In this document: positions 47,353-64,000 of the stretch, one piece after another | Layout of the letters: each line of letters starts with the position of its first letter | Numbering within the stretch: the first letter of the stretch is position 1 | Source of the DNA: Oscillospiraceae bacterium | GTDB lineage: Bacteria; Bacillota; Clostridia; Oscillospirales; Acutalibacteraceae | DNA length: 64,000 nucleotides | Direction of reading: 5' to 3' | NCBI GenBank assembly: GCA_015066015.1 | Contig: SVPE01000006.1 | Location: 1-64,000 of the forward strand | Translations under genes and position numbers: made by a program | The notes under the pieces: model-generated | The model's input: the letters and a program-made list of their open reading frames with translations, nothing else | Database searches by the model: none | Told to the model about the DNA's origin: nothing

Positions 47353-49461
47353 ATGTTGAGAAATAAGTTTAAAGAATGGTTCAGTGTGCAGCTTGTTAAA
47401 AAGCCGGGAGGAGTAGTTCTTGTTGCTATTCTTCTTTTTAATATTATATTTTTTCTTGCATCTGCAATAACCATAAGTGCCTTGTCTCTTGAGGGCACCG
47501 AAAAGATGGGATTTATTGAAGCTGCATTCTGCACAATTACAATGATCCTTGATGCGGGCTGCATTCAGTTTGTTGTTGAGGATATCGGACAGTCCGGTGT
47601 TCTTATAACATTGGTTTGTCTGTTTATAATTTTTGTCGGAATGATTTCATTTACCGGTGCGGTAATCGGTTATATTACAAATTATATCTCAGGCTTTATC
47701 GATAATGCCAACCTGGGTAAAAGAAAGCTTCATTTAAGTGAGCATTTTGTTATTCTCAACTGGAACTCGAGAGCGTCAGAAATAGTAAACGATATGCTCT
47801 ATTGTGATAAAAAGCAGAATGTTGTTGTTCTTGTGCCTGCGAGAAAAGCAGAAATTGAAAGAGAAATAGAAGAGCGCATCAATGACACTTTAAGAAAAGA
47901 GAATAAAGCGATTGAACGCAGATATAAGGATGCACCGTGGCTTAAAAGAAAACTTGCTACTGTAAGATATAAATTCAGAAGAAACGTAGTCGTTCTTGTC
48001 CGTGAGGGTGATATTTTTTCAGCAAAGCAGTTGGAGGACATTTCTCTTGATAAGGCAAGGTCTGTCATTATACTCGGCAGCGATATAAACAACTCTGTAT
48101 GCCGTTTCGGACAAAAGGAAAAGACAGAGGAACTCAGCAGAGGCAATTCTCAGACAATAAAAACCCTTATGCAGGTTGCAGATATAACTTCAGCAGAAGG
48201 CTCTTATGACAACCAGAGAATAATTGTAGAAATAACTGATGAATGGACCGGAGAGGTTGTAAATAAAATTATTGAAGCCAAGCAGGTTGATGCAAAGTGC
48301 AATATTATCCCTGTCAGAGTAAATGAAGTTCTGGGTCAGATACTTTCGCAGTTCTGTCTGATGCCTGAGCTTAACCACGTTTACAGCGAGCTGTTCTCGA
48401 ATAAGGGCGCGGAATTCTATACAGAAGAATGTGAAGACGGCGATGAAATGAAATTCCTTACAGAATATCTCGCTGACCACAATCATGCTCTTCCGGTGAC
48501 AATAATGAAGAATAAGGGTAAGTTTCATCGCTATTATGTTGCCGAAAACGACGAGGATGTCGACAAGCGTACGGTTATGACCTTGTCGGATTATGAGGTG
48601 TCGCTGAATAATAACTACAAAATGGAAACTAAAAATGTTATTATTCTCGGTCATAACAGTAAGTGTAAAAATATTATGGCGGGATTCAATGCATTCCGTA
48701 ACGAGTGGAAAACAGCTGACGGCGAGCCTGTGCGTATAGTTGTTGTTGATGATAAGAAGAGTCTTGAAAAAATGAATTACTATAGGGAGTATCCCTTTGT
48801 AATAAAGACCGTAGAGGCTGAAATTTACGACAAGGACCTTATCTGCGAAACAATCGAAGAATTCGTATCGTCAAACAAAGAGGATACCAGTGTGCTTATC
48901 CTTTCGGACGATTCTGCACTTACGGAAAACATTGACGCCGGAGCACTTGCAAATCTTGTTTATGTGCGAGAGATAATTAACAGAAAACTTAAGGAAAATC
49001 CCGATTTTGATGAAGAGAGCGTTGACATTATCGTTGAAATCATCAATCCCAAGCATCACGATATAGTAAGCAGTTACAGTGTTAACAATGTTGTTATCAG
49101 TAACAGATATATCAGTAAGATGGTAACTCAGATAAGCGAAGTTGAGGCTTTGTTTGAATTCTATAACGATATTCTTTCATATGATGATGAGGTTTCAAAC
49201 GGTTACAGCAGCAAAGAAGTATATATTAAGAAAATAGCAGATTACTTTGAAGAGATTCCCGAGGAGACAACTGCAGATAAACTTGTCAGAGCTGTGTTCA
49301 ACGCTTCGGTGAACACCGAAAAGAAAGAAGATATCAATCCGACAATAGCACTCGGTTATGTTAAGCCCGGCGGAAGAGTGAAAATCTTTGGAGGCGACCT
49401 TTCGGAAATCAATGTTAAGCTTGAGCTGAGAGACAAGATGATTCTTTTCAGTGCCCATTAA
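47353..49461 (+). CDS. CASTOR/POLLUX-like ion channel with RCK-type nucleotide-binding domains
   Basis: A 702-residue membrane protein; GAGAGGG lies before ATG 47353. Membrane helices at about 20-43 and 79-105 flank a pore-like segment (FCTITMILDAGCIQFV). The rest is cytosolic. The first Rossmann-like RCK/TrkA-N domain begins HFVILNWNSRASEIVNDML at about 134, and a second one starts KNVIILGHNSKCKNIMAGF at about 430. This order (two or more helices, long linker, two RCK-like domains) is that of the plant CASTOR/POLLUX channels and their bacterial relatives. Ions and ligand are unknown. It is a single-gene transcript ending in a terminator. Confidence 0.8.
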   Translation: MLRNKFKEWFSVQLVKKPGGVVLVAILLFNIIFFLASAITISALSLEGTEKMGFIEAAFCTITMILDAGCIQFVVEDIGQSGVLITLVCLFIIFVGMISFTGAVIGYITNYISGFIDNANLGKRKLHLSEHFVILNWNSRASEIVNDMLYCDKKQNVVVLVPARKAEIEREIEERINDTLRKENKAIERRYKDAPWLKRKLATVRYKFRRNVVVLVREGDIFSAKQLEDISLDKARSVIILGSDINNSVCRFGQKEKTEELSRGNSQTIKTLMQVADITSAEGSYDNQRIIVEITDEWTGEVVNKIIEAKQVDAKCNIIPVRVNEVLGQILSQFCLMPELNHVYSELFSNKGAEFYTEECEDGDEMKFLTEYLADHNHALPVTIMKNKGKFHRYYVAENDEDVDKRTVMTLSDYEVSLNNNYKMETKNVIILGHNSKCKNIMAGFNAFRNEWKTADGEPVRIVVVDDKKSLEKMNYYREYPFVIKTVEAEIYDKDLICETIEEFVSSNKEDTSVLILSDDSALTENIDAGALANLVYVREIINRKLKENPDFDEESVDIIVEIINPKHHDIVSSYSVNNVVISNRYISKMVTQISEVEALFEFYNDILSYDDEVSNGYSSKEVYIKKIADYFEEIPEETTADKLVRAVFNASVNTEKKEDINPTIALGYVKPGGRVKIFGGDLSEINVKLELRDKMILFSAH

Positions 49462-49642: not shown

Positions 49643-49671
49643 TTGACAAAAAATGGCTGCTACTGTATCAT
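49643..49671 (+). promoter_or_regulatory. Sigma-A promoter of the VWA/tubulin-like operon
   Basis: TTGACA at 49643-49648, a 17-bp spacer, and TATCAT at 49666-49671. No other strong promoter is seen before the window end, so it probably drives the whole cluster. Confidence 0.75.
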
Positions 49672-49709
49672 TATAACATAATTCGTTTTGCAAAAAACTA
49701 ATGAAAAGA

Positions 49710-49748
49710 GGAGGGTATACACGTGCATCGCACGTGTAAAAAGGCTTT
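49710..49748 (+). promoter_or_regulatory. Hairpin between a strong Shine-Dalgarno site and the start codon
   Basis: GGAGGG at 49710-49715 is followed by a perfect 9-bp hairpin (49718-49726 with 49730-49738, loop ATC) and then AAAAGGCTTT before ATG 49749. Unfolded, the site is 33 bases from the start; folded, it is within reach (about 12). Translation may depend on the hairpin. Confidence 0.5.
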
Positions 49749-52028
49749 ATGGAGAGAAAAAGAAAAGTGTTCACCCGGGCTGTGTCGCTGGCACTGGCTG
49801 TTATGATGCTGATGTCGGTTTTTTCATTGGCGTTTGTTGCTGATGCGGCTTTGGTTGAAAAAACACAGAGGACCTATGACATTGCAGTTGCTTTTGACAA
49901 TTCGGGCTCGATGTATGATAACACTCAGGCATGGTGTCAGGCAAAGTACGCAATGGAAATTTTTGCTTCTATGCTTGATTACGAAAACGGTGATAAGCTT
50001 ACAATATTCCCGATGTGGAAGGTTACAACTGACTCCCAGCCCGAGTATGATGCGAATGCAAACAAAAATGTAGACCCGGTTGTAATTGACAGCAAAGAGG
50101 ACATCAATCTCATATCAAATATGTTCACGGTAGTAGCCGGCGGAACTCCATTTGAGCCGGTGGAAGAGGCTTTTGATCATCTCAAGAAATCCAGCAAGAC
50201 TAATAAATGGTTAATTGTGCTTACTGATGGTAAATTTGAAAAGCTTAAACGAGACGATAAGCAAACAAGTAATGTTGATGTTCAAGGAAAACTTGAGGAA
50301 TATGCTTCGAAAAAAATTAACGTTCAGTATCTAGCAATAAAAACGCCAACCTCGACGGCTGTTTCGCTTGAACCAAGAGATTATCTTTATACAGCTGTTT
50401 CAGAGGCTACTGACCTTCAGTCTGATTTGAGTGAAATCTGTAACAGAATTTTCAAGCGTGCTGTGATTAACAGTAAATACATAAGTGGCAATAAAATCAC
50501 TCTTGATATTTCAATGAATAACATAATTGTGTTTGCTCAGGGTACTGATGAAAAGGTTAAGATAAGCGGTATTAAAAATGCTAACGGCGAAAGTGTGGAT
50601 AGGACTTTTGACAGCGGCGTCAGAAAATACAGTGAAATCAGTGCAAACTATCTGAAAGAAGAAGCTGATTGGAACGGCCCCCCTATAGTCGACAACACTT
50701 TATTCGGTCACGTTGTAACCTTCGCAGCTTGTCCCAAGGGTGAATACACACTCGATTGTTCGGGCGCGAAAAACATTCAGGTTTTCTATGAGCCGAATGT
50801 TGATATCCTTGTAACACTCAAAGATAAGGAAACCGGTGAAGAGGTTTACAATTCTGCAACTTCAGAAGGTAAGATCGAGGTTGTAGCAGGTAAATATAGG
50901 CTCGATTGTAAATTTGTTGACCGTCTTACAGGTGAAGATATAACGAAATCTGAACTTCTCGGAAATGTGGAACTTAATGCTGCCGTGGTCGCCTCGGATG
51001 GTAAAGAGATTAAGGTCAAAAAGGATGGCATTGTTGAGCTTAAAGCAGATGAACGCACCACTATCAAGGTTACCGGTAAATACCTTGATGATTATAAAAT
51101 TGAAACTGAAGATAATAAAGACGGTTTTGAAATAAATATAAGTGTAAAAATCCCGGAGGTTGATGATCTTCAGATTGATGTTGAGGGTGCTGATAACTGG
51201 TACACCATTTCTCAGAATGAAAAATGGCAGCCTATGAAGGCTAAGCTTACACTCAACGGTCAGCCTCTCACAGCAGATCAGATGAAGGCGCTTGAGTTTG
51301 CGGTTAAGTCGTCAAAGGATTCGCTTAAGCTTCGCACAGAGACACTCGGTGACGAGTCGGCAATTATGGTTTATATCGCCAAAGACGAAGCGGACAATTT
51401 TGTAAAGCCGGAAACCGGTATTTACACACTTGAGTTTACCGGTCAGCTTCCGGCAAACGAGTACGGTCTCAGACCCGCTGATTCGGAAAAAAAGCTTTTT
51501 GAAATCCAAAACTATGCTGAATATTGGCGCTGGCTTATATATGTAGTGGTTTTCGCTATCTTGCTGGCACTCTTCCTTATGTTTATGAGTCAGAAGGTAT
51601 TGCCTAAAAAAATGACAAAAGAAAATGCATCTTTCTGGTGCGCTGCAGTAGGTGATATGGACAGTGTGGTTGTAGATGTAAATTACAGGGCGAAATCGAA
51701 AGTTCTGGAAATCAAAGGCCCTAATTCTGTTCCCTATGAGCAACAGTGCAATGCTACGTTTTCGCTTAAAGCTGTTGATAACAGATTTAAAAAATCTAAA
51801 AACAGACAAATATGCATTGTAGGAATAAGTTGCTCAACCTGTGATGAAATGACAGTAGGTTCAACTGATTATGTAAAGGTTAATGGACAGTGGGTTAAGT
51901 CTATTGATGCTGAATCGATGGATGAGGGAAAGGTCCCATCGGGAATAAAACAGATTGTCGGTCCTGGTGTATCGGTAGAACTTTCGAGAAAAAAAGCAAG
52001 TCTAGAATGTACTGTTAGAGCAAAATAA
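49749..52028 (+). CDS. Secreted VWA-domain protein with a C-terminal membrane helix and cytosolic tail
   Basis: A 759-residue protein. Residues 1-33 are a signal peptide (cleavage near ADA-AL). The VWA domain at about 43-240 has a complete MIDAS: DNSGS (50-54), the Thr in AGGTPFEP and LTDGKF. Two or three beta-rich domains follow (about 250-585). A membrane helix at about 595-617 (WLIYVVVFAILLALFLMF) leads to a cytosolic tail of about 140 residues. So a metal-dependent adhesion domain faces out while the tail faces the tubulin-like protein encoded 24 bases downstream. It likely transmits or receives binding events across the membrane. It is the first gene of the operon; its ligand is unknown. 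Confidence 0.85.
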   Translation: MERKRKVFTRAVSLALAVMMLMSVFSLAFVADAALVEKTQRTYDIAVAFDNSGSMYDNTQAWCQAKYAMEIFASMLDYENGDKLTIFPMWKVTTDSQPEYDANANKNVDPVVIDSKEDINLISNMFTVVAGGTPFEPVEEAFDHLKKSSKTNKWLIVLTDGKFEKLKRDDKQTSNVDVQGKLEEYASKKINVQYLAIKTPTSTAVSLEPRDYLYTAVSEATDLQSDLSEICNRIFKRAVINSKYISGNKITLDISMNNIIVFAQGTDEKVKISGIKNANGESVDRTFDSGVRKYSEISANYLKEEADWNGPPIVDNTLFGHVVTFAACPKGEYTLDCSGAKNIQVFYEPNVDILVTLKDKETGEEVYNSATSEGKIEVVAGKYRLDCKFVDRLTGEDITKSELLGNVELNAAVVASDGKEIKVKKDGIVELKADERTTIKVTGKYLDDYKIETEDNKDGFEINISVKIPEVDDLQIDVEGADNWYTISQNEKWQPMKAKLTLNGQPLTADQMKALEFAVKSSKDSLKLRTETLGDESAIMVYIAKDEADNFVKPETGIYTLEFTGQLPANEYGLRPADSEKKLFEIQNYAEYWRWLIYVVVFAILLALFLMFMSQKVLPKKMTKENASFWCAAVGDMDSVVVDVNYRAKSKVLEIKGPNSVPYEQQCNATFSLKAVDNRFKKSKNRQICIVGISCSTCDEMTVGSTDYVKVNGQWVKSIDAESMDEGKVPSGIKQIVGPGVSVELSRKKASLECTVRAK

Positions 52029-52052
52029 ATAATATATTCAGGAGGAAAAATT

Positions 52053-55000
52053 ATGGCAGTAAAAAAAGAAAACATTCAGTGTAATGTTACAAAGGAGACA
52101 CTTTTTGTCGGTGTGGGCGGTATCGGCTCAGACATCGTTAAAAAAGTTGCCGAAAAGTGCGTAGGCACAGAGGCTGATAACCTCAGATTTGTGGTTATGG
52201 ACACAAATGCTAATGATCTTAGCGAAGTTAAGAAATCAAAAGCTGTGATAACTCACGTTCAGACTTCTTCTACGCAGAGAGTTCGTGATTATCTTGCAAA
52301 TGATAAAGATGCATGTGATAATTGGTTCCCTGTAAATGAAACTCTTAACGATAAGACTGTATCAGAGGGTGCCGGTCAGGTAAGAGCTATCTCGAGACTT
52401 GCTCTTAATGCAACTATTAAGACAGGTAGAATTCAGGAGCTTTACAACGCTATCGACGAGCTCTTCCTTAAGGATGGCGGTGACCTCAAGCAGGCTCTCA
52501 GAGTGGTTATCGTTTCGTCAGCGGCCGGCGGTACAGGCTCGGGTATTGCGATGATTATAGGTATGCTTATTCGTGAATATCTTCACAAAAATTATCGTGA
52601 AAAGTCAGCTATCATTCGAGGATATCTTGTACTCCCCGGCGTTCTTGATACTGTTATAAGCTCTGAGACTGAGCGTCAGAGCCTTCGCAGAAACGGCTAC
52701 GCAACAATTAAGGAAATCAATGCCTTTATGATTAAAGCTAGTGGCTATTGCTCAATGCGTAAGGAGTTGGAGCGATATAAGGATATACATATCAATGTTC
52801 CTACCACAACGAATGGTGTGGATAGATTAGAAGGGTTGCCCTTCGATTTCTGCTTCCTTCTTGATAAGGTTGATAAGAGTCAGGAAAGCATGCAGTCAAT
52901 GGATCAGTATAAGGAGTTTGCTGCACAGAGTCTTTATGAGCAGAATATTGGACCAATGCAGAAATCTGCTTTTGGTCAGGAGGATAATGTTATCAAGGAG
53001 TTTGCCGTTGGTGATAACCTCGGTAGAAACCGTTTCGGCGGTATCGGTGCATCGGTTCTTAAGTATCCCTATGAGGATATAGTGAAGTATGTTGCTAATA
53101 AAAGAGCGCTTTCCTGCATAGGTGACGGTAATATTGTGGGTAAATGGCTTAAATATGACAAGGCTTTTAAACAGGAAGAAGCAGAGTTCAAAAAGAGAAG
53201 TGCTTACACTTCTGATGAGGCGCCGGAAATAGGTGAAATCTATATCTCTAAGGTGAATTCAGGTGGAGATGTATTTGATAATTCTATAAAAAGGTGCTTT
53301 GCAAAAAATGTTGAAAAACCTGAAGATGAGGTTGATGATCTGATTTCATCCTTTAAAGATGCCTTTGATAAGTATATTTATGATGGATTCGAAAACAATC
53401 GTGATGTTCAGCAAATAAAAGCCAGTGCATCTGTAGTTAAAGAATATTGTTCTAAATTAGAAGAACTTCCTGATGTCGGAAAAATACAGGAGCAGAAAAA
53501 CGCTGTCAGAAAATATGAGGAGATAGTAAAACATAGTGCTGAAGGAATAGCTAGAATGCTGGCAAAAGCTGCAATGTATGATGCTCCAAGTATTAAAGGC
53601 GATAAAATACAGTCTTATAATATTGAGTCTCTTCTTGTTGGAAGAGAGGGTGCTATGCATCCTAATGCAATGAGATATTTGCTCTATGCTGTTAATGAGA
53701 CGCTGAAAAAGAAACAGGATGCTGCTAAAACTGAAAAGCAAAAAGCAGTAAAAACACTCTCTAAGTTTGCGGTTGATGCGAAAAACAGTGATTACTTTGA
53801 TGTCGATGTTGGTTTTGCTAAGAAGGAATTAGAAGAGAATTTTGATCAGGTTTGTGATTTGGTTGGAAAGACTGATTCAGGATTTTTACAGCAGGGCGCA
53901 AGAAAGGCGGTTCTGAACAAGATTAAAGAAATTTTCCCTGCCTATATTAAAGCTGTAAATAAGTTATGTGAGAACACCTTGAAAGAAGCTTCTTATGAAG
54001 TTGCAATAAAACATGTTACTCAACTTAGTAAAGAGTTTGAAAAATTCTATTCAAGCTTTGAAAGTAAGGTGCATCTCCTTTCAAAATCACAGGAGGACAT
54101 AGCTAGTAAGCTTAAGTTTAGGGACGGAAATAATGTTTCATATGTTTGTGGTGACAGAAGGTCCCTTGAAAGGTTTGCTGAAATTTGTCCTACAGGCAGC
54201 GATGATCTTATGCTTCCTGCGGAATTGTGTGCAGATATTTTCGAAGCAATTAAATATAATGCGGAAAACATGAGAATGGTAGGTATTGACGCCACACTTG
54301 CTAAACCAGGGAAGGATATATTTGAGACTGTTCTTACTAAATATTTTGTTGATTCAGTAAGCGATGAGTGCGACGGAATACTCAATATGAATATATTCTC
54401 GGCTATCGAGAAGGAACTCGAATTCAAAGAGTATTTCAAAGCTCAGGATAATGCAGGTGAGGGTGAAATAGTATATATTCCCGAGATTTCCGACCGTGAT
54501 AAGGATGCCTACTTCAGAGGAAAGTTTGGATTTGGTTATAATCTTGCTGCTCCCGGCATCGGAAGAGCCGGCTTCTCTGAATCACGTGAAGTAAGGCTTT
54601 GCGCTTATAACAATAAGTTAAGCGACTTCAACAGTGTAGATATTAAGGCGGCTATCCAGCCAAATAAGATTGGCGCGGTTGAAACAAATACTGTTTCTAA
54701 GTATGAAATAAGATTCTTCAATGCACTTTATAATGTCACTGCTGATGCAATTTCTCGTTTCAAAGCTCCTGAATATAATAAGGATTGCGGCAATAAAAAA
54801 CAAAGTGAAGCAGGTATTTATTATCGTGACTATCACGATTATGTGAAGAAAATAGGTCCTGATTCCCAGAGAAGCGCAGCCTTCTCGCTTCACACTGATA
54901 AGCGTTGGGATTCCCTTTCAGAGTTACCTGAGATTTCACTCGACGCGCATTATAATGAAATGGTGAAGATACATTCCGCTCTTATTTATGCTGTCGTTCA

Positions 55001-55661
55001 TAGTATGATTGTCACTTATCAGTCTTCAAGATATGATGCACGTAAGCGTATATTTGCACTTGAGGATTGTACGGATGGCGACAGAACGGCGCTTATTGTT
55101 TCAAATAACACTGAGTGTGATGAATTCTATGAGGTTCTTGATGCTCTTTACAGAGACAGAGCTTCTGTTGCAAAGATTTACAGTATGCAGAAAAAACGCT
55201 GCGAGTATGATATGCAAAAGAATCGCAGATATACCGAAAGTGCATTTGTTGCCGATGCTAAAAAGTTTAAGATTGGTGACGGTCATGATGCACCTACCAG
55301 CGTTTTTGAAATTCCTCTTATGTATTACAACTCACTTCCTCGAGCCAAACTTGATGACAGCGAGTTAGCAATCATGATTGATAGTGTCATTTCTGTTCTT
55401 GAACATGAAATTGAGAAATATGAGCAGGTAACAGACCGCGCACCTTTCCTTGCAGAACGTCTTGAAGAACAGTTCGAGCTCTTTGTCAAGAACTTCCTTA
55501 ATGATGATTTCAACAAGGATGGTGCGATGCGAAAGAACACTGTTATCAACGAAAACCGTGTAGTAAATATGGTTTATCGTAAGGTTACCAATAAAATGAG
55601 AGACCTCAATGTTTATGGTGTTGATGAGAGAATTGAAAAACTTAGGAAACTTATCAAATAA
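52053..55661 (+). CDS. Tubulin/FtsZ-superfamily GTPase-like protein, very large
   Basis: A 1202-residue protein; AGGAGG precedes ATG 52053. Residues 17-32 (LFVGVGGIGSDIVKKV) match the first FtsZ nucleotide loop, DTNANDLS at about 50 matches the FtsZ NTDAQ-type strand end, and SSAAGGTGSG at about 152-161 is the tubulin signature GGTGSG. This is the PF13809-like (tubulin_2) group. The GTPase part ends near 450. A long helical region (about 450-760) and a mixed C-terminal half follow, far beyond the roughly 380 residues of FtsZ. It has no membrane helix. Polymerisation and GTP hydrolysis are inferred from the family only. Confidence 0.82.
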   Translation: MAVKKENIQCNVTKETLFVGVGGIGSDIVKKVAEKCVGTEADNLRFVVMDTNANDLSEVKKSKAVITHVQTSSTQRVRDYLANDKDACDNWFPVNETLNDKTVSEGAGQVRAISRLALNATIKTGRIQELYNAIDELFLKDGGDLKQALRVVIVSSAAGGTGSGIAMIIGMLIREYLHKNYREKSAIIRGYLVLPGVLDTVISSETERQSLRRNGYATIKEINAFMIKASGYCSMRKELERYKDIHINVPTTTNGVDRLEGLPFDFCFLLDKVDKSQESMQSMDQYKEFAAQSLYEQNIGPMQKSAFGQEDNVIKEFAVGDNLGRNRFGGIGASVLKYPYEDIVKYVANKRALSCIGDGNIVGKWLKYDKAFKQEEAEFKKRSAYTSDEAPEIGEIYISKVNSGGDVFDNSIKRCFAKNVEKPEDEVDDLISSFKDAFDKYIYDGFENNRDVQQIKASASVVKEYCSKLEELPDVGKIQEQKNAVRKYEEIVKHSAEGIARMLAKAAMYDAPSIKGDKIQSYNIESLLVGREGAMHPNAMRYLLYAVNETLKKKQDAAKTEKQKAVKTLSKFAVDAKNSDYFDVDVGFAKKELEENFDQVCDLVGKTDSGFLQQGARKAVLNKIKEIFPAYIKAVNKLCENTLKEASYEVAIKHVTQLSKEFEKFYSSFESKVHLLSKSQEDIASKLKFRDGNNVSYVCGDRRSLERFAEICPTGSDDLMLPAELCADIFEAIKYNAENMRMVGIDATLAKPGKDIFETVLTKYFVDSVSDECDGILNMNIFSAIEKELEFKEYFKAQDNAGEGEIVYIPEISDRDKDAYFRGKFGFGYNLAAPGIGRAGFSESREVRLCAYNNKLSDFNSVDIKAAIQPNKIGAVETNTVSKYEIRFFNALYNVTADAISRFKAPEYNKDCGNKKQSEAGIYYRDYHDYVKKIGPDSQRSAAFSLHTDKRWDSLSELPEISLDAHYNEMVKIHSALIYAVVHSMIVTYQSSRYDARKRIFALEDCTDGDRTALIVSNNTECDEFYEVLDALYRDRASVAKIYSMQKKRCEYDMQKNRRYTESAFVADAKKFKIGDGHDAPTSVFEIPLMYYNSLPRAKLDDSELAIMIDSVISVLEHEIEKYEQVTDRAPFLAERLEEQFELFVKNFLNDDFNKDGAMRKNTVINENRVVNMVYRKVTNKMRDLNVYGVDERIEKLRKLIK

Positions 55662-55699
55662 GAAAAATATATAGGTTTTAAGAAGGGGAGATTTGTATA

Positions 55700-57916
55700 A
55701 TGTTTACGGTTATAATTGCCGAAAAAGAAATGCTCAAACTCTTCGAAGAAACTGAGATGTTCTTTGGACCGCTTATTGATAAGGAAAAGGTTGCATTTTG
55801 TTGTTGGGACAAATATGCTGATTCTATTGAAACTATGGTTCCTGAACTTTATGATACAATAGAATTTCAAAAGGAGTGGAGAGCTATTGTGTTTACTGAC
55901 AGTGGATACAATAAGCTCAACCCCTTTGATTATACAGGATATTATGAGCCATATTTCAAAAAAGAAAAGCGAAATTGGACTTATTACAATAAACGCTGTA
56001 TGTCAAGGATTGATTCTTATAATAAGGCAGCTGAAAACCCGTTGGTCAGACTTACTACTGCTCTTTGCGGATTTCCGAATATTAGAGCCGTTTCCAATAA
56101 CGAATCGGACTATCTAGCCGTTTTGTCGGGTGAAATGGAAATATATACTTATATGTTGAAAAAACAGTTTTATTTGACAGGCTGCTCTGAATTGGCTTTC
56201 AGGCTTGACAGATATCAAAGGGAAGCGCTCAAAAATTTTGTTCCTGAAAGTGAAGTTGATAACCTTATTTTAATGGTTAAAGATGGAGACATAGCCGGAA
56301 TTGTTGAAATGATTTCCGAAGAGGCTGTTGTAGATTTTATAAAGTTGATTGACTGTAATTCTTTGAATTGCGATCCTGATTTTGCAACACTTGAAATTGA
56401 AAACACAAGGAAAGCAGAGATCTTCAATTCTTTTAAGAATGCCTTTACTATTAAGGATAAATTACCAGTTGAGGTTGTTTGTCTTTCATCTAGAACATAC
56501 AGTACTGAAAATGCGGAACAAGACATACCATGGAAGGTAAAAGACGAAAGATCCTATTCCAGGTTTTCTGAATTCAATTTATACAGCGATAAATTGAGAT
56601 TTCTCTTGTTTGACGTTTTACCTAAGGATAACAGACAATATAAGTTTGATGAGGTCAGGCTTATGACACTGTTACTTCTTCTTGCGAATAACGAGATGCC
56701 CCCAAGCGCTGTTAATGCATCTCGAGTTTATCGCGCCAATATTAACCTTAATTCAGATATTATTTCAAGAATATGTGAAAACTATCTCAACAAGCTCAGG
56801 GCTACTGAAATCGCTATAAAAGAGATTGAAAGCAATCTCGGCAGAGATGTGGAAGACTCCATATCGGACGATACTGCACAGCGGGTTTTCGAATCAAATG
56901 TAACAATACCTGTTAAAATTAAACCGTCAGTCAATGAAGCAGACTTATTTGCTAAAAGCAAAGGCTTAGGTTTATCAACAGACTGTCCTGTGGACGAAAA
57001 GAAATTCTGGGGCAATCAATACAGAGAAATAAGCAAAAAATTCCAAAGATATCTCAGAGAACCTGTAAGAGCACTGAGAACAGCCGTTGAGGAAAATCTG
57101 CACGAAAATAATAAAATTGACGATGAAAGATCTATGCTTTTGTCTGTAAATCAGACAGAGGACATAAAATATCATCTTGCAGAAACTGAGCAAAAGATGA
57201 TTGAAGCTACAACAAAACAGATATATGATACAAGAAAGTTTGCCGAAGAGCTCAAACAGGCTGATAAAGAAATAAACCGTAAGATTGAGCAGCGAATGAC
57301 AAAGCAGAAAACTGTTACAATAGCTTTGATTGCGCTGTCAACATATTTTCTCGGATTCGTTTCGATGCTTTTCAGCAACTTAAATACATCAGATTCATTG
57401 AAGTTTTCTTTGTTGCTGGTTGTCGGTGCGTCAGCGGTATTTCTGCTGACAGGTTTTGTGTGTCTGTTTACACTCAGACGAAAGCTGATCAATCGCATCA
57501 GACACTTCAACTTCGTTATGAGCGGAATACAAAGCCAGATACGGTTGGCACTTTCGAAATTTTCTGTTTATTTGAGCGGCGTATGCAATGTTATGCGCGA
57601 TTTCTCTGCTCTTGAAAAGAGAGAGCTCAGTGTAACAAAAACAAAGCGGATTCTCAGTTATCACGATATGAAAATCAAAGAAAAAACAGAAGCAGTATTT
57701 GATTTGTTTTCAAAATATGTGGATTTCAGTGCGATAGAAATCAAAGAGTGCGAGCCTTATGATTATGATTTTACGATTTTGCGTGATTATGATTATGAGA
57801 TGCCCGACATCCACTCGAGAAAACGAATCGAATTCCTGCAAGTCGGCAACGAAGTTGTCCTTCCTGTTGACTACGTGGATTCTGTTTCTGTCATAAGGGA
57901 GGAATTGTATGACTGA
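55700..57916 (+). CDS. Coiled-coil membrane protein of unknown family, 738 aa
   Basis: A 738-residue protein behind AAGGGGAG. Residues about 1-520 are soluble and mostly helical, starting FTVIIAEKEMLKLFEETEMF. Residues 495-535 are a coiled coil (IKYHLAETEQKMIEAT...). Two membrane helices lie at about 538-557 and 566-588 (LKFSLLLVVGASAVFLLTGF), with a short exposed loop, so both ends are cytosolic. The last 140 residues are again helical and acidic. No family is recognised. Its 8-bp overlap with the next gene and its place after the tubulin-like gene suggest it is the membrane receptor or adaptor for that protein. Confidence 0.75.
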   Translation: MFTVIIAEKEMLKLFEETEMFFGPLIDKEKVAFCCWDKYADSIETMVPELYDTIEFQKEWRAIVFTDSGYNKLNPFDYTGYYEPYFKKEKRNWTYYNKRCMSRIDSYNKAAENPLVRLTTALCGFPNIRAVSNNESDYLAVLSGEMEIYTYMLKKQFYLTGCSELAFRLDRYQREALKNFVPESEVDNLILMVKDGDIAGIVEMISEEAVVDFIKLIDCNSLNCDPDFATLEIENTRKAEIFNSFKNAFTIKDKLPVEVVCLSSRTYSTENAEQDIPWKVKDERSYSRFSEFNLYSDKLRFLLFDVLPKDNRQYKFDEVRLMTLLLLLANNEMPPSAVNASRVYRANINLNSDIISRICENYLNKLRATEIAIKEIESNLGRDVEDSISDDTAQRVFESNVTIPVKIKPSVNEADLFAKSKGLGLSTDCPVDEKKFWGNQYREISKKFQRYLREPVRALRTAVEENLHENNKIDDERSMLLSVNQTEDIKYHLAETEQKMIEATTKQIYDTRKFAEELKQADKEINRKIEQRMTKQKTVTIALIALSTYFLGFVSMLFSNLNTSDSLKFSLLLVVGASAVFLLTGFVCLFTLRRKLINRIRHFNFVMSGIQSQIRLALSKFSVYLSGVCNVMRDFSALEKRELSVTKTKRILSYHDMKIKEKTEAVFDLFSKYVDFSAIEIKECEPYDYDFTILRDYDYEMPDIHSRKRIEFLQVGNEVVLPVDYVDSVSVIREELYD

Positions 57917-60900
57917 GAAAATTTTTGACATCATAAAAATGGTCATTGCAATAATTCCTTTTGTAATGTTGTGCTTCTCGGCTAAAAAAGCAAATGCTGA
58001 AAAATCACAGCGTTATAAGCAGTTTTTTATGCCTGTTGTTGCAGTCATATACATTATTGCCGGTATGTTTCTGGCAAAGCATGTTGACGAATGGCTTATA
58101 AACTTTATAAACAGTATTCCCGGTAAAATTTCATCTCTTGCATCTTTTACCTGGATACCCGAAGCAGTAGGCTCGGTTATCGTTGACATTGCAAATATGG
58201 TAAGAAATTTCATAGAAGGACTCGATATGAATTATTGGGTGTTCTATGCGACAAATGTTTTCCTTCTTACAGTCTATATGGTTGTAAAGAAAATAATTGT
58301 CAGCCTGTCACTTAAAATCTTCAAGGACGACCCGAGCAGCTGTATTATGGTGGCAGAAAAATTCTATGAATTTTTCCCGGAAAGAGGAAAATGGTGCCTT
58401 AAGGAAAATTATGTTCAGGCACGTACTCTTCTTAAAACGTTATTCTACTGTGCTGTTTTTGTATCATCAATCCTGATGATTGTAAGTCATAAGTTTTATC
58501 ACGACGGACGTCTTGAGGCAATGTTTTATCCTGTGTTCGGTGTAATCACCGTAGGTGAGTTGTTCTATTATCTCGACGGACTTACCAAGCGTGAATATTG
58601 CGGCAACATTCTCGGTGAAGATGAGGATGCTTATAAGGTAGTCAATTATTCACTTCTCAGAAAGTTTTTACGCTCAGTTTTCGGTGATAAGCTTCTTGCT
58701 GAAAACACAAGTGTAAACAACTCCCTTTCCTACGAGCTGACAACAGATGACATTATCCGCGAGTTTGAAAACGACGAGGATCAGAAAATCCAGAGCTTTG
58801 CAACATATGTGGATATGCTCAACAAAACAGGGTTTGATATTGACCACAACTATCTTTATTCCTCAAGGGATATGCTCAACGGAAAGAGCATACTGTTTAA
58901 CAATCCCTTCTATAATGACCTTATTCCTTACGCTTTCTATCCCATGAACAGAAATCTTCTCAGTCATAAGAAGGTGCTTATCGTTCTTGGAAGACACTCT
59001 ATCGAAAACGATATAATCAGCTGGGTGGAAAAAGGAATTGAAGCAGTCACCAATATTCCCTTCCTGTGGAATGTCGGTGTGCTCAACGCAGACGGTGAAT
59101 ACGACAGTGAGCTTGATGTCGGTATCGTTACAAGATCCGATGTTCTGAACATCAAATTACACGAGGCAAATACTGATTTTCTTGAAAATGTCGGTTTCTT
59201 CGTTGTAATTGAGCCGTCAAAGCTTATTTCAACTGCACAGATCGGTCTTAATCTTCTTGTTAAAAAATGCAGGAAGGAAGACGAGGATATTGTTTACTGC
59301 CTTTGTGACAAGAACTGTGACGGTCTTGTTGACGCGATGTCACATGTTCTTATGACAAGCATTACAGAGGTCTCGGCAACCAAGAAGCCCCGCGGCACAT
59401 CCTCTTATATGTGCTGGGAGGCAGATGAGGATTATCTCCATCACCGCCTTGTGCCTAATATTTCACGTTACCTCGGTATCGGTACAGAACTTTCTTTTGC
59501 GGCACTCAAGAACCAGGTATCAAAAACCAAATGGTACGGTGGCGAATCCTTCCCTGTTGTTGATTTGCGATGGATTGCAAAGCAGTATTATTACGACCTT
59601 ACCAAATATGCAGGTATATCCACAAGCCAGGATGCAATGGATGACAGCTTTGAAACCACATCCAACTTCTGGAGCGCAGAGGTTGACAAAAACAGCTATC
59701 TTACAGTTGAAGACGAATCCTTCAATATGTTCGAAATTCTGAGAGAATTCTCAACAAGAACAACAGAGCAGGGATTTGTAAACGTAATTTCATCAGATTA
59801 CCTTCTCAAGGATTATATGGCAGACAACTCCTCGATTTTCGAGGCAGATGCAAAGGCTGTTCCTTTTATTGTTTCTGACTATACACGAAGCAACAGAAAC
59901 ACAGTTCTGCGTATTATACTTATGATGAGTACCTTCCCGGTAAAGGAAGAAATCCTTGAAAAAGAGCTTTCACTTCTTGGCATTACTGCTTTTGAGATCG
60001 AAAAGCAGCTGTGGTATGAAATGTATAAATGTTTCTCAACTGCTGCAGAGATAACGGCGCTTCCCCAAAATTACAAGGAGGCGGTTTACCTTACTTATGA
60101 TAAGCCTATAAAGCAGGGTAACGGTGAATGGGAAAGCAGCATTATCAGAACTACGGATACCTTCAATCTTAAAAACGGTAAGATAGAAAAGAACTACTAT
60201 ATCAACGATAAGACATTTTTTGATTTATGTGTTGCACCCTTGCGTTCGGCAGGTTATGTTGCTGAAGACGAAAAAGGTCAGGCCTACTACCTCGGCTCAG
60301 AGCTTGCAGGTCACATTTATCAGAAATATCTTCCCGGACAGTTCTTTACTTTCGGCGGTAAGTATTACGAAATGCAGTACCTTACTGCAGACGGACAGAT
60401 ACTTGTCAGAAGAGCGGCAGATCATATCAACGGACGTCCCTCTTACAGACAGATGCGCGAATATGTTATCAAGGGTACAATGCCTTCTGAGAAAATCGGC
60501 GCACAGCAGAATATTTCCGGCATGAGAGTCGTCAAGGAATTTGCAGATATTCTTGTAAAAACTCCCGGTTATTACAGAATGAGCAAATACAATGACTTCT
60601 CAACTGCAAAGAAAATTTCCTTTGAGGGAGAAAAAAGCGGTATTCCCGAGAGAGTATACTGCAACAAGGAAATTATAAAAATTGAACTTCCCGAACTTGA
60701 CGGCAAGTTGAATGATAATGTCCGTTATACAATTACTGTTTTGTTCAATGAGATTTTCCGCACAATATTTGCTGAAAACCAGCCTTATATCTGCGCTGTT
60801 ACAGATAACACCTTTATTGAAAACAGTGAAGATGCAGAGCTCCTTACATATTCGATAAAGGGAGAAAACTGTGAAATCAGCAAAAATGCCATTTATATTA

Positions 60901-63821
60901 TTGAAGACAGTCAGCTCGACCTCGGTCTTACGGTTGCTGTTGAAAGAAACCTTGAACGTATTTTCGGTATCATTCACGATTATATAAGCTGGCACAATGA
61001 AACTCTTGAAGAGAGCCTTAATCCTTCACCCGATCCGACCGGTCCGGTCAGCTTTACGGAGGTGCCCGTAGGCGAGCCTAAAGAGCCTGAAGCAAAGGGC
61101 CTCAAGAAAATCCTTGCCAAGCTCAGAAAGCTGTTCGGTAAGGGCAAAAAGGCCGACGGCACTGCCGAGGGCGGAGATAAAGATCCTTCAGCAAATCCTC
61201 AGACTCCCGAAGGCGAGAAAGAAGAGCCCGAGAAGAAGGGTATATTCGGCATATTCAAGAGAAGAAAGAAACGCAAGAAGGGTGAGGATGATGTTCCTGC
61301 TGCGGACGGCGAAAATACGGGTGATAATGAGCCTGCGCCCGAAGCTCCTGAGGTTGATTATGAAGAACCTCAGCCTGAGCCGGAAGCTCCTGAGGCAGAG
61401 GAGGAGAATGGTGATTCTTCCGTAGAGCCTGAAGAGGATGCCGAAATTCCCGAGCCGGAAATCCCCTTGTTTATTCCTTCTTATGAAGAAGAATCCGTTA
61501 TAACAGACGAGACTGAAGCTGAAGACGCTGATGCTCAGCCTGAAGGCGAGGAGACAGAAGCTGAAACGGTTGAAGAGCCTGTTATAACTGAAGAAACCGA
61601 AGATGCTGAAGAGTCTGCTGAGAGTGGAGCTGCCGAAGCTGAGGAATCAGACGACGCTGATACAGAAGAAGCTTCATCGTCTGAGCCTGTTGCTCTTCAG
61701 GAATTCCCTGCTGAAAATGAAATATCGGATTCAGTAGAGCAAGAGCCTGAAATAGGCTTCAAGAACAAGAGAAAGCCTTATCACGAGAGATATTATATGC
61801 TTTACGGAAGAGAGAGCGAATTGCCGTTCATTGATCTTTCCGGCACGCTCGATTATCTGACGGATATCGGAGTGAAGAATAATGCTCTCAAACAGGCACG
61901 AGAGGGTAAGAAGATTGCAAAGCTTGTAGAAACAACCTTCAGACCCGGTAAGCCTGATGCGAGATACTGTGACTTCTGCGGTGCGGAAATTTATGGTGTT
62001 GAATATGAAACTCTTGCAGACGGACGTGACAGATGCGTTTCTTGCGGAAGAACAGCTATTAAAACCGGCGAGGAATTCCGTAAGATATTCGAGGATGTCC
62101 GCAGAAATATGGAATCCTTCTTCGGAATTCGAATCAATGTTGGTATCAGAGTTGAAATGGTCAATTCCAAGACTCTTCATAAGCGTCTCGGCAAGGCGTT
62201 CATTCCTACTCCAAAAACCGACGGCAGAGTCCTCGGCGTAGCTATCAAGGATAAGAGCGGTTATACTCTTATGATTGAAAACGGCTCACCGAGAATGGCG
62301 TCAATGCTTACAATGGCACATGAGCTTACTCATATCTGGCAGTATGTCAACTGGAATGACAAGGCTGTTAAAAAGAAGTACGGTAAGAATATGCGCCTTG
62401 AAATTTATGAGGGTATGGCAAAATGGGTTGAGATACAGTATGCTTATCTCATCAACGAGCCTGCAGTAGCCAAGAGAGAAGAAATTCTAACTTCTTACAG
62501 AGAGGATGAGTACGGATACGGCTTCCTTCGTTACCGTGCAAATTATCCCTTCTCAACAGGCACGGTTATAACAAAACCGACACCCTTTATGAATGTTGAA
62601 ACACCGCTTGCTCCCGAGTACTGCGGAACAATAAGCGTGAAGCTTCCCGTGATTCCTACCGGTTATGTCGATCCGGACGGTGAGGGCGGTAACGGCGATG
62701 ATACCGATCCTGCTCCTCAGCCTGAGCCTATACAGGGAACTATCGAGAGAAATCCTGATGATTATGCGAAATATGCATATAATCTTCTCAATGATGCGCA
62801 GAAGCCGGTATATGATTTACTGTACGAAGCCATTATGAATATGAACACTGAGGTCAGCTCCTTCGAATATCCGATTGTTGACAGTGAGGTTCAGAAGATA
62901 GTTGACTATGTTCAGAGAGATCATCCCGAGATGTTCTGGTTCCAGCACGGTGCTACATACTACTACGATAAGGAAACACGTATTGTAAGCCGCATCGAAC
63001 TGAGATACTGTATGTCAGCAGAGGAGCGCGAGCTTCGCGAAGACAAGATTGAGAAGGAAATCAGTCCTTTCCTTACTTCAATAAATAATTCTATGAGCGA
63101 TTATGAAGTAACGCTTCACTTGTATGAGAATATAATCAAGCTTGTGGATTATGACACAATAGGACTTGAACGTCAGAAGAAAACAACCGTAACTCCCGAT
63201 GTTCCCGATGATCTCAGATCAATTTACGGTGTGTTTGTAAACAAGAAGGCCGTCTGTGCAGGCTATGCTAAGGCAATGCAGTATTTGCTTAATCTTTGCG
63301 GCATAGAGTGTCTTTATGTTACAAGCGACACACATGCGTGGAATATTGTGAAACTTGAAGGCGATTATTATCATCTTGACGTCACATGGGGTGACGGCAC
63401 TGACACTAAAAAGGAAAAGGTGCAGAGCGATGCCGTTAACTATGATTGCTTCTGCCTGACAACAAAAGAAGTCCTTCAGCTTAAGTCTCACGTGCCCGAA
63501 AAGGATTTTGAAGTACCTGAATGTACGGCAACCAAGTGCAATTATCACAGAAGAAACGGACTTTATTTCGAAAACTATGATATTGATAAAATCAGAAATG
63601 TCATCACTGAAAAAGTGAAGCTCGGCAAAATTGATATCAGTATCAGGTTTGAAACAAATTCCGCCTTCCGTGAGGCAAAGAAAGAGCTTATCGACAAGAG
63701 TAAGCTCAGAGAGTTGATACAGTTTGCATCTCTTAAAGCTAAGGTTAAATTAGATTCAAGCTATATGTATTCTCTTAACGATGACAGAAAAGCAATTGCT
63801 TTTTATCTTAAAAAACACTGA
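57909..63821 (+). CDS. 1970-aa multidomain membrane protein with metallopeptidase-like and transglutaminase-like domains
   Basis: Residues 1-225 hold about five membrane helices. Residues about 230-1030 form a large soluble region with a Rossmann-like part (KKVLIVLGRHSIENDIISWV at about 355); no Walker A is seen. Residues about 1037-1275 are an acidic Glu/Pro/Ala-rich disordered linker with basic patches. A zinc ribbon follows (Cys1354, 1357, 1376, 1379), then the metallopeptidase motif HELTH at 1471-1475 (MLTMAHELTHIWQYVNW). The C-terminal transglutaminase-like core has Cys1783 (AVCAGYA), His1809 (DTHAWNIV) and Asp1824 (HLDVTWGD). The gene overlaps its upstream neighbour by 8 bp. It could be a processing or cross-linking enzyme of a VWA/tubulin-like complex. 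The fusion is new to me. Confidence 0.8.
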   Translation: MTEKIFDIIKMVIAIIPFVMLCFSAKKANAEKSQRYKQFFMPVVAVIYIIAGMFLAKHVDEWLINFINSIPGKISSLASFTWIPEAVGSVIVDIANMVRNFIEGLDMNYWVFYATNVFLLTVYMVVKKIIVSLSLKIFKDDPSSCIMVAEKFYEFFPERGKWCLKENYVQARTLLKTLFYCAVFVSSILMIVSHKFYHDGRLEAMFYPVFGVITVGELFYYLDGLTKREYCGNILGEDEDAYKVVNYSLLRKFLRSVFGDKLLAENTSVNNSLSYELTTDDIIREFENDEDQKIQSFATYVDMLNKTGFDIDHNYLYSSRDMLNGKSILFNNPFYNDLIPYAFYPMNRNLLSHKKVLIVLGRHSIENDIISWVEKGIEAVTNIPFLWNVGVLNADGEYDSELDVGIVTRSDVLNIKLHEANTDFLENVGFFVVIEPSKLISTAQIGLNLLVKKCRKEDEDIVYCLCDKNCDGLVDAMSHVLMTSITEVSATKKPRGTSSYMCWEADEDYLHHRLVPNISRYLGIGTELSFAALKNQVSKTKWYGGESFPVVDLRWIAKQYYYDLTKYAGISTSQDAMDDSFETTSNFWSAEVDKNSYLTVEDESFNMFEILREFSTRTTEQGFVNVISSDYLLKDYMADNSSIFEADAKAVPFIVSDYTRSNRNTVLRIILMMSTFPVKEEILEKELSLLGITAFEIEKQLWYEMYKCFSTAAEITALPQNYKEAVYLTYDKPIKQGNGEWESSIIRTTDTFNLKNGKIEKNYYINDKTFFDLCVAPLRSAGYVAEDEKGQAYYLGSELAGHIYQKYLPGQFFTFGGKYYEMQYLTADGQILVRRAADHINGRPSYRQMREYVIKGTMPSEKIGAQQNISGMRVVKEFADILVKTPGYYRMSKYNDFSTAKKISFEGEKSGIPERVYCNKEIIKIELPELDGKLNDNVRYTITVLFNEIFRTIFAENQPYICAVTDNTFIENSEDAELLTYSIKGENCEISKNAIYIIEDSQLDLGLTVAVERNLERIFGIIHDYISWHNETLEESLNPSPDPTGPVSFTEVPVGEPKEPEAKGLKKILAKLRKLFGKGKKADGTAEGGDKDPSANPQTPEGEKEEPEKKGIFGIFKRRKKRKKGEDDVPAADGENTGDNEPAPEAPEVDYEEPQPEPEAPEAEEENGDSSVEPEEDAEIPEPEIPLFIPSYEEESVITDETEAEDADAQPEGEETEAETVEEPVITEETEDAEESAESGAAEAEESDDADTEEASSSEPVALQEFPAENEISDSVEQEPEIGFKNKRKPYHERYYMLYGRESELPFIDLSGTLDYLTDIGVKNNALKQAREGKKIAKLVETTFRPGKPDARYCDFCGAEIYGVEYETLADGRDRCVSCGRTAIKTGEEFRKIFEDVRRNMESFFGIRINVGIRVEMVNSKTLHKRLGKAFIPTPKTDGRVLGVAIKDKSGYTLMIENGSPRMASMLTMAHELTHIWQYVNWNDKAVKKKYGKNMRLEIYEGMAKWVEIQYAYLINEPAVAKREEILTSYREDEYGYGFLRYRANYPFSTGTVITKPTPFMNVETPLAPEYCGTISVKLPVIPTGYVDPDGEGGNGDDTDPAPQPEPIQGTIERNPDDYAKYAYNLLNDAQKPVYDLLYEAIMNMNTEVSSFEYPIVDSEVQKIVDYVQRDHPEMFWFQHGATYYYDKETRIVSRIELRYCMSAEERELREDKIEKEISPFLTSINNSMSDYEVTLHLYENIIKLVDYDTIGLERQKKTTVTPDVPDDLRSIYGVFVNKKAVCAGYAKAMQYLLNLCGIECLYVTSDTHAWNIVKLEGDYYHLDVTWGDGTDTKKEKVQSDAVNYDCFCLTTKEVLQLKSHVPEKDFEVPECTATKCNYHRRNGLYFENYDIDKIRNVITEKVKLGKIDISIRFETNSAFREAKKELIDKSKLRELIQFASLKAKVKLDSSYMYSLNDDRKAIAFYLKKH

Positions 63822-63840
63822 GAAAAAGAGGTGTGATGTA

Positions 63841-64000
63841 TGAAAAAAATAATTGCAGTTATTCTTGTGGTCATTCTTGCAGGTGCAGTATTCGTGCTTT
63901 ATCCTAAGCTCGTTCACGAATGTGATGATTGCCACGAAACATTTTTCGGTACAGGTTATGTTCCTAATGCTATCCAGGAATGGGCATCGGAAACAGAAAT
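63841..64000 (+). CDS. Fifth gene of the operon, partial: secreted or membrane-anchored protein with a CxxC site
   Basis: The gene starts at ATG 63841, 19 bases after the large gene and eight bases after AGAGGTG; the window cuts it after 53 codons. A signal anchor (KKIIAVILVVILAGAVFVLY) is followed by HECDDCHETFFGTGY, a CxxCH site that could hold zinc or heme. The rest of the protein is beyond the window. Spacing shows it belongs to the same operon. Confidence 0.6.

What the first reader, a model, noticed from the sequence alone, without database searches (positions are those of the whole stretch)
49643..64000. Candidate undescribed system: VWA + giant tubulin-like GTPase + coiled-coil membrane protein + protease/transglutaminase megaprotein
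Seen: one strong promoter, then five same-strand genes with gaps of 24, 38, -8 and 19 bases. They encode an external VWA protein with a cytosolic tail, a 1202-residue protein with FtsZ/tubulin nucleotide motifs, a two-helix coiled-coil protein, and a 1970-residue membrane protein carrying HELTH and Cys-His-Asp motifs. Established: FtsZ-like families linked to VWA proteins have been predicted to form membrane-remodelling systems. Inference: this is an envelope machine in which a cytosolic filament is coupled through membrane proteins to an external MIDAS domain and to peptide-processing or cross-linking activities. I know of no described system with this gene set.
Basis: partly seen in the sequence, partly recalled or inferred. 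Interest (0 to 1): 0.9.

Follow-up and report, generated by a model that had tools for sequence, protein, structure and literature searches.

The report
Mobile tubulin–VWA membrane gene cassette
Some gut Clostridia carry a four-gene set, apparently passed between species, that joins an outward-facing VWA protein to a giant tubulin relative and two large membrane proteins; its function is untested as far as I found, but its neighbours suggest a surface-sensing or defence machine.

Summary
VWA (49749-52028), Tubulin_2 protein TUB (52053-55661), two-helix membrane protein CC (55700-57916) and 1970-aa MEGA (57909-63821) form a tight operon. Of 91 non-redundant relatives, 77 have VWA-TUB-CC-MEGA in order, 13 are cut by locus edges and one (L175) shows only CC-MEGA. 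In 394 genomes of the order, all 25 with a strong MEGA match also have Tubulin_2. The cassette is patchy (5 strong of 34 genomes of the genus) and its tree barely follows host family, so it probably spreads horizontally. MIDAS residues are invariant in 26 of 26 VWAs. Recurrent, optional neighbours: a CASTOR-like channel, an RyR-domain membrane protein, TIR proteins. Tubulin-VWA operons were predicted in 2010 (membrane remodelling) and 2020 (conflict systems); this set lacks the 2020 GTPase/GAP1 partners and has its own core: a new variant of a known kind. Best guess (0.35): a mobile, membrane-anchored, GTP-driven surface-sensing or conflict machine. The enzyme-like domains look cytosolic (crude), against external cross-linking.

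The parts
49643..49671 (+). sigma-70-like promoter TTGACA-17-TATCAT, candidate promoter of the cassette
   Evidence: best of 48 matches in the region; 40.2 expected by shuffles
49749..52028 (+). VWA protein, 759 aa: N-terminal hydrophobic segment aa 12-30, VWA domain aa 44-204, single TM aa 596-614, cytosolic tail
   Evidence: D50 S52 S54 T133 D160 invariant in 26 of 26; N-terminal segment + TM in 68 of 73 long homologues
52053..55661 (+). TUB, 1202 aa: Tubulin_2/FtsZl1-type GTPase domain (52101-53108) plus ~850 aa C-terminal part without a Pfam match over cut-off
   Evidence: PF13809 E 1.3e-55; GGTG[SAT]G in 79 of 80 long homologues; only Tubulin_2 match in its genome
55700..57916 (+). CC, 738 aa: large N-terminal part, TM hairpin aa 539-589, conserved C-terminal EELYD tail
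   Evidence: hairpin in 82 of 84 long homologues; no Pfam family over its cut-off
57909..61013 (+). MEGA N-terminal region (aa 1-1035): multi-pass membrane part and large conserved domain of unknown fold
   Evidence: 24-sequence alignment A1; no Pfam match for the window protein at E 0.1 and at most one member each for three families; best PDB E 0.71
61014..61775 (+). MEGA acidic/proline-rich linker, poorly conserved
   Evidence: low occupancy in alignment
61776..62588 (+). MEGA zinc ribbon (4 Cys) and zincin-like HELTHIWQ domain (HELTH at 62319-62333)
   Evidence: 4 Cys invariant in 23 of 23, HExxH intact in 15 of 23; DUF6782 putative metallopeptidase matched at E <= 0.1 by 16 of 23 members, best 1.3e-7, window's own 0.002
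63072..63494 (+). MEGA transglutaminase-like domain (Cys-His-Asp), optional
   Evidence: triad pattern in 21 of 91 loci
63840..64000 (+). fifth gene, 82 aa, runs to contig position 64088; not conserved core
47353..49461 (+). accessory TRKup: CASTOR/POLLUX-like channel protein, followed by its own terminator-like hairpin
   Evidence: PF06241 28.4 bits over cut-off 26.7; profile matches PDB CASTOR 9.1e-8; found in 7 of 26 genomes with the cassette (one weak) and 0 of 26 without

Best explanation
A horizontally exchanged, membrane-anchored, GTP-driven surface-sensing (conflict-type) machine. Shown by sequence: a conserved four-gene cassette VWA-TUB-CC-MEGA, intact MIDAS and tubulin nucleotide motifs, membrane segments in three of the four proteins, and, at a minority of loci, neighbouring genes for a CASTOR-like channel, an RyR-domain membrane protein and TIR proteins. 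Inferred: the external VWA domain binds a ligand or partner through its metal site; the signal crosses its single TM helix; TUB binds GTP and assembles into a filament or lattice on the membrane, held by CC and MEGA; MEGA acts as the large cytosolic effector or scaffold, with metal-peptidase-like and sometimes transglutaminase/thiol-peptidase-like activity. Where the add-ons are present, TIR-made ADP-ribose-type nucleotides could be read by the RyR domain and change ion flux, possibly stopping growth.
For: Cassette order in 77 of 91 non-redundant loci, median gaps 29, 33.5 and -8 bases. In the order, MEGA was found only with Tubulin_2: 25 of 25 strong genomes; two further short weak MEGA hits (G238, G304) lacked Tubulin_2 and were not counted. 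Patchy and probably horizontal: family labels need 16 changes on the TUB tree, least possible 8, shuffled mean 17.5, as low in 26 of 200 shuffles (quick method); 5 strong (and 1 weak) of 34 genomes of the genus, including a distant version in G897; different flanks in two genomes of one genus. Accessory genes within 8 kb: a TRK gene at 31 of 91 loci, all 37 placements on the cassette strand; TIR_2 in 12 of 75 same-strand downstream proteins scanned; RyR profile match to PDB 4.6e-13; CASTOR 9.1e-8. RyR-domain proteins of phages degrade or sequester 2'/3'cADPR (PMC13232231, abstract and opening read).
Against: No experiment. TIR and channel genes were not found next to most loci, though many flanks are short, so they are optional at best; two of 13 downstream TIR genes are on the other strand. 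No defence-library match (PADLOC; one hit at E 0.05). The T7 loop needed for GTP hydrolysis could not be placed, so filament turnover is unproven. Old paralogy with losses could also give a tree that ignores host family. Patchy, mobile distribution also fits adhesion or niche-use genes. TRKup association with cassette genomes is modest (p 0.01-0.02) and related genomes are not independent.
Confidence: 0.35

Rival explanations
1. Membrane remodelling or vesicle-forming cytoskeleton, as Makarova and Koonin predicted for FtsZl1-VWA operons: TUB filaments on the inner face bend or pinch membrane, VWA links to the wall or surface.
For: Same protein family and VWA partner (paper text); three membrane proteins. 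That the host also has a normal FtsZ is assumed, not checked.
Against: Patchy and apparently horizontally exchanged; TIR, RyR and channel neighbours are not expected for vesicle formation; no lipid-acting domain was found in the four proteins.
Confidence: 0.25
2. Surface adhesion or mechanosensing system of gut bacteria: MIDAS VWA grips a surface or fibre and the tubulin scaffold with CASTOR-like channel turns contact into a signal.
For: Invariant MIDAS positions; channel neighbours; titles of named relatives are mostly gut and rumen Clostridia MAGs.
Against: Apart from single weak Ig-like and FG-GAP matches, no adhesin or wall-anchor domain was found in 26 VWA proteins; the genome collection may itself be rich in gut genomes.
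Confidence: 0.2
3. Part of, or scaffold for, a type VII-like secretion system.
For: EssC-like ATPase and WXG100 gene follow MEGA in G422; FtsK-type ATPase and a papain-fold toxin-like gene follow it in G148; a full EssC lies on the same contig about 11 kb from the cassette in G162.
Against: EssC above cut-off in 3 of 26 cassette genomes and 5 of 26 without (p 0.70; G422's EssC is just under cut-off); in two of the three it is on another contig; none above cut-off in the own, incomplete genome; MEGA's N-terminal profile shows no EssC similarity.
Confidence: 0.05

Closest known systems
FtsZl1 (Tubulin_2) - VWA predicted membrane-remodelling operons (Makarova and Koonin 2010, PMC2875224)
   Same: Same tubulin-superfamily branch and a neighbouring VWA gene; large proteins; membrane-protein neighbours.
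   Different: CC and MEGA are constant partners here; OmpA, kinase or GTPase partners were not seen among the commonest downstream families.
GAP1-N2 / DO-GTPase tubulin-VWA systems (Kaur et al. 2020, PMC7159879)
   Same: Tubulin plus VWA genes in Firmicutes; membrane location; conflict-like distribution. Other Tubulin_2 loci found here fit them: L057 (GAP1-M and DO-GTPase2), L049 and L066 (DO-GTPase2), L060 (DO-GTPase2 below cut-off).
   Different: No DO-GTPase or GAP1 homologue found in the ORFs of 91 cassette loci; one tubulin gene, not two. By pairwise search the only type-B proteins that recur in cassette loci are TUB, TIR proteins, an ABC transporter and one lipoprotein (L078) like MEGA's C-terminal part; VWA is shared at domain level.
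CASTOR/POLLUX (DMI1) ion channels
   Same: TRKup's profile matches CASTOR and DMI1 chains in the PDB.
   Different: Bacterial and accessory; 48-71% identical within the 14 homologues aligned; ion selectivity unknown.
Thoeris and other TIR/cADPR signalling
   Same: TIR and RyR domains occur beside the cassette.
   Different: ThsA was not searched for; TIR genes were seen at a minority of loci, several of them with LRRs.

Membership tests
FtsZl1 / Tubulin_2 family | N-terminal Tubulin_2 GTPase domain | tested here: met
   E 1.3e-55, 189.5 bits over cut-off 27
FtsZl1 / Tubulin_2 family | tubulin nucleotide loops T1 and T4 intact | tested here: met
   GGTG[SAT]G in 79 of 80, G-x-GG-x-G in 78 of 80 long homologues; invariant G22 G23 G25 D50 G159 G160 T161 G162 G164 in 32
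FtsZl1 / Tubulin_2 family | long coiled-coil middle and helical C-terminal domain | not tested
   C-terminal ~850 aa present; no coiled-coil program run
FtsZl1-VWA operon | neighbouring VWA gene | tested here: met
   77 of 91 loci, 13 more cut off
FtsZl1-VWA operon | OmpA, kinase or GTPase partners in many members | tested here: inconclusive
   not among the 25 commonest Pfam families of 75 (of 123) downstream proteins (136 families in all, rest not shown); upstream proteins not scanned
GAP1-N2 / DO-GTPase systems | DO-GTPase gene | tested here: not met
   phmmer with one DO-GTPase at E <= 0.01, and with three more at 1e-5, found none in the ORFs of 91 loci; single-sequence search, so a very distant one could be missed
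GAP1-N2 / DO-GTPase systems | GAP1 gene | tested here: not met
   GAP1-M protein of L057 used as query, no hit at 1e-5
GAP1-N2 / DO-GTPase systems | two tubulin genes (Firmicutes form) | tested here: not met
   one Tubulin_2 match in the genome (91% complete)
GAP1-N2 / DO-GTPase systems | FNIII-repeat protein | not tested
   no search made
Type VII secretion | EssC ATPase in the genome | tested here: not met
   own genome's best match is far below cut-off
Tubulin fold and filament | tubulin fold in a structure model; T7 loop | not testable with these tools
   Structure prediction switched off
Plant DA1 (LIM-peptidase) | DA1-like domain match | tested here: inconclusive
   PF12315 in 1 of 23 members at E 0.031

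The most novel reading that the evidence does not exclude
A mobile bacterial immune or contact-response machine in which an integrin-like metal-dependent surface domain controls a tubulin lattice under the membrane, and this lattice gates a giant protease-like effector and, through TIR-made ADP-ribose nucleotides, an RyR-domain protein and a CASTOR-like channel.
Probability: 0.2. Interest if true: 0.92.

Novelty: new variant of a known kind. Interest (0 to 1): 0.62.

Why it matters
Tubulin_2/FtsZl1 proteins have been known from sequence since 2010, and the listings of my paper searches (open-licence PMC only, seen as titles and abstract starts) showed no experimental study of them. This cassette gives a compact, strictly ordered set with four fixed parts, with relatives in named strains (Flavonifractor sp. 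An112, Pseudoflavonifractor sp. An44, Faecalicatena contorta ET51), so the open question of what these tubulins do can be tested directly. If the conflict reading is right, it would link a bacterial tubulin to surface sensing and ADP-ribose-type signalling.

Tried and rejected
MEGA as degenerate helicase or FtsK/EssC ATPase: suspected by eye; profile comparison with EssC/FtsK proteins and with three SNF2 proteins gave nothing, rejected. DA1-like metallopeptidase: resemblance recalled from memory, one weak match, not claimed. Type VII secretion: adjacent in G422 and an FtsK-toxin pair in G148, but no genome association, rejected as general role. Empty site in the same-genus genome G138: the flanking genes' homologues lie on different contigs, one at a contig end and the other in a different setting, so no empty site could be shown. 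First genome-contig scan with TUB alone found no relatives. CC versus the third gene of the divergent clade (9 sequences): hhalign 81.8% probability, E 1.1e-5, only over the TM hairpin and the stretch after it, so homology of the whole protein is likely from position and architecture, not proven; these are counted as CC in the 77. The class-wide Tubulin_2 search (14 of 391 genomes) was not followed into its new genomes. Dropped before counts: 13 duplicate loci (105 to 92) and L078, whose MEGA hit is a 42-bit match of a lipoprotein (92 to 91; itself counts it among 14 'edge' loci). A planned search for DO-GTPase used single sequences only.
Full report
The genes. Four long same-strand genes lie at 49749-52028, 52053-55661, 55700-57916 and 57909-63821 with gaps 24, 38 and -8; an 82-aa gene follows after 18 bases. 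Upstream on the same strand is a CASTOR-like channel gene (47353-49461). Downstream on the contig (locus L002, add 60000) come a small lipoprotein-like gene, a membrane protein with a C-terminal RyR match (PF02026 E 0.0017, below cut-off, for this protein alone), and a TIR-TM-LRR protein.

What each protein is. TUB has a full Tubulin_2 domain (E 1.3e-55) and a sub-threshold Tubulin hit; a 32-sequence profile finds FtsZ/tubulin structures only weakly, best 9e-4. VWA alone is below Pfam's cut-off, and only 6 of 26 homologues match PF00092 at 0.01, yet the five MIDAS positions are invariant in 26 of 26 and DxSxS is found in 71 of 73 long homologues (the two misses look like a mis-called and a truncated frame). 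The VWA profile found no PDB chain at 1e-3. CC has no Pfam family over cut-off, and its profile's best PDB matches (1.7e-3) are to a ribosomal protein of no evident bearing; the TM hairpin is in 82 of 84 long homologues. MEGA's first 1035 residues match no Pfam family in more than one of 24 members at 0.1 and nothing in the PDB better than 0.71. Its zinc-ribbon cysteines are invariant in 23 of 23; HExxH is intact in 15 of 23 and lost in 8, all of the divergent clade, in which only L067 keeps it. HELTHxWQ occurs in 62 of 91 loci, counting truncated ones as misses, and the transglutaminase triad pattern in 21 of 91. MEGA matches fall in two or more ORFs in 25 of 91 loci, which suggests separable N and C modules, though frameshifts are not excluded. 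Positive-inside counts put MEGA's C-terminal side inside in 21, 19 or 12 of 24 members as the hydropathy threshold rises: cytosolic is likely but not firm.

Conservation of the set. Loci came from a TUB search of the host family (7 of 150 genomes), a Tubulin_2 search of the order (34 of 394 genomes) and a MEGA-profile scan of named genomes (132 relatives, the best 80 kept). Thirteen duplicates and one spurious hit were removed. Of 91, 77 have VWA-TUB-CC-MEGA in order, 13 are cut by the locus edge (under 8 kb before MEGA) and L175 (Peptococcaceae) has CC and MEGA without the others in 9 kb upstream. In the set fetched by MEGA alone it is 66 of 80 full, 13 edge, 1 exception (duplicates included). 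Strong MEGA matches occur in 25 of 394 genomes, every one with Tubulin_2 (hypergeometric p 2e-32; related genomes are not independent, and the MEGA profile was built from TUB-linked loci). Nine Tubulin_2 genomes have no MEGA. Five of them (G101, G225, G339, G367, G436) carry DO-GTPase-like genes near the tubulin, G339's below cut-off and G367's by pairwise match only; in G410 and G427 the pairwise search saw none in the stretches held; G213 and G503, with weak partial tubulin hits, were not fetched.

Spread. On a tree of 26 TUB proteins, host-family labels need 16 changes against 8 possible and 17.5 in shuffles (as low in 26 of 200, quick method, one long branch). In the window's genus, 5 of 34 genomes have strong matches and one more a weak one. 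In G003 the cassette sits beside a homologue of a gene that lies 22 kb from it in the window genome, and G003's channel gene is on another contig. I read this as accessory, horizontally moving behaviour; old paralogy with losses is not excluded.

Neighbours. Clustering all flanking ORFs of 92 loci gave four outstanding families: TRKdn 19 loci, TRKup 17, TIR 8, lipoprotein 6; nothing else exceeded 4. TRK genes lie within 8 kb at 31 of 91 loci, a lower bound because many flanks are short (39 of 91 have 5 kb or more downstream); all 37 placements are on the cassette strand. TIR genes downstream: 11 on the cassette strand, 2 on the other. TRKup was in 7 of 26 cassette genomes (one weak) and 0 of 26 without. 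TIR_2 was the commonest domain among 75 of the 123 same-strand downstream proteins (12 of 75; I chose the 75, leaving out mainly short ones).

Known kinds. Makarova and Koonin 2010 (PMC2875224; parts 1-2 of 5 of the text read) described FtsZl1 proteins with VWA genes and predicted membrane remodelling. Kaur et al. 2020 (PMC7159879; section 29 and passages read) described GAP1-N2 systems with tubulins and VWA and predicted conflict roles. Passages of PMC5898192 and PMC9871819 add no function. The present cassette shares the tubulin and VWA with both, shows no GAP1 or DO-GTPase, and has CC and MEGA as constant partners. I therefore rate it a new variant of a known kind. The mechanism given above is inference at about one in three.

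Noticed in passing
L002:6618-8606 (contig 66618-68606, beyond the window): TIR domain (aa 4-96), one TM helix (206-224) and LRRs: the parts of a Toll-like receptor in reverse order, beside the cassette (the comparison is from memory).
   Followed up: partly
L181:849-6036 (G422): EssC-like ATPase, a small gene without Pfam match, and WXG100 (E 1.3e-10) directly after MEGA: a type VII-like module at the cassette's end in this genome.
   Followed up: yes
L044:12171-15659 and L077:317-835 (G148): FtsK-type ATPase after MEGA, then a 172-aa papain-fold toxin-like protein (PF15644, 2.3e-8) and small proteins.
   Followed up: partly
L175:13029-21953: Peptococcaceae locus with CC and MEGA but no VWA or TUB upstream, followed by a GH94-type protein of at least 2975 aa.
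   Followed up: no
L078:3038-4105: A lipoprotein-like protein that matches MEGA proteins of 9 cassette loci sits just before a tubulin of the other operon type.
   Followed up: no
L067:3604-3888 and L153:14453-14773: Small proteins directly after MEGA that look like lone RyR domains; RyR was matched by 2 of 75 downstream proteins, which ones was not printed.
   Followed up: partly
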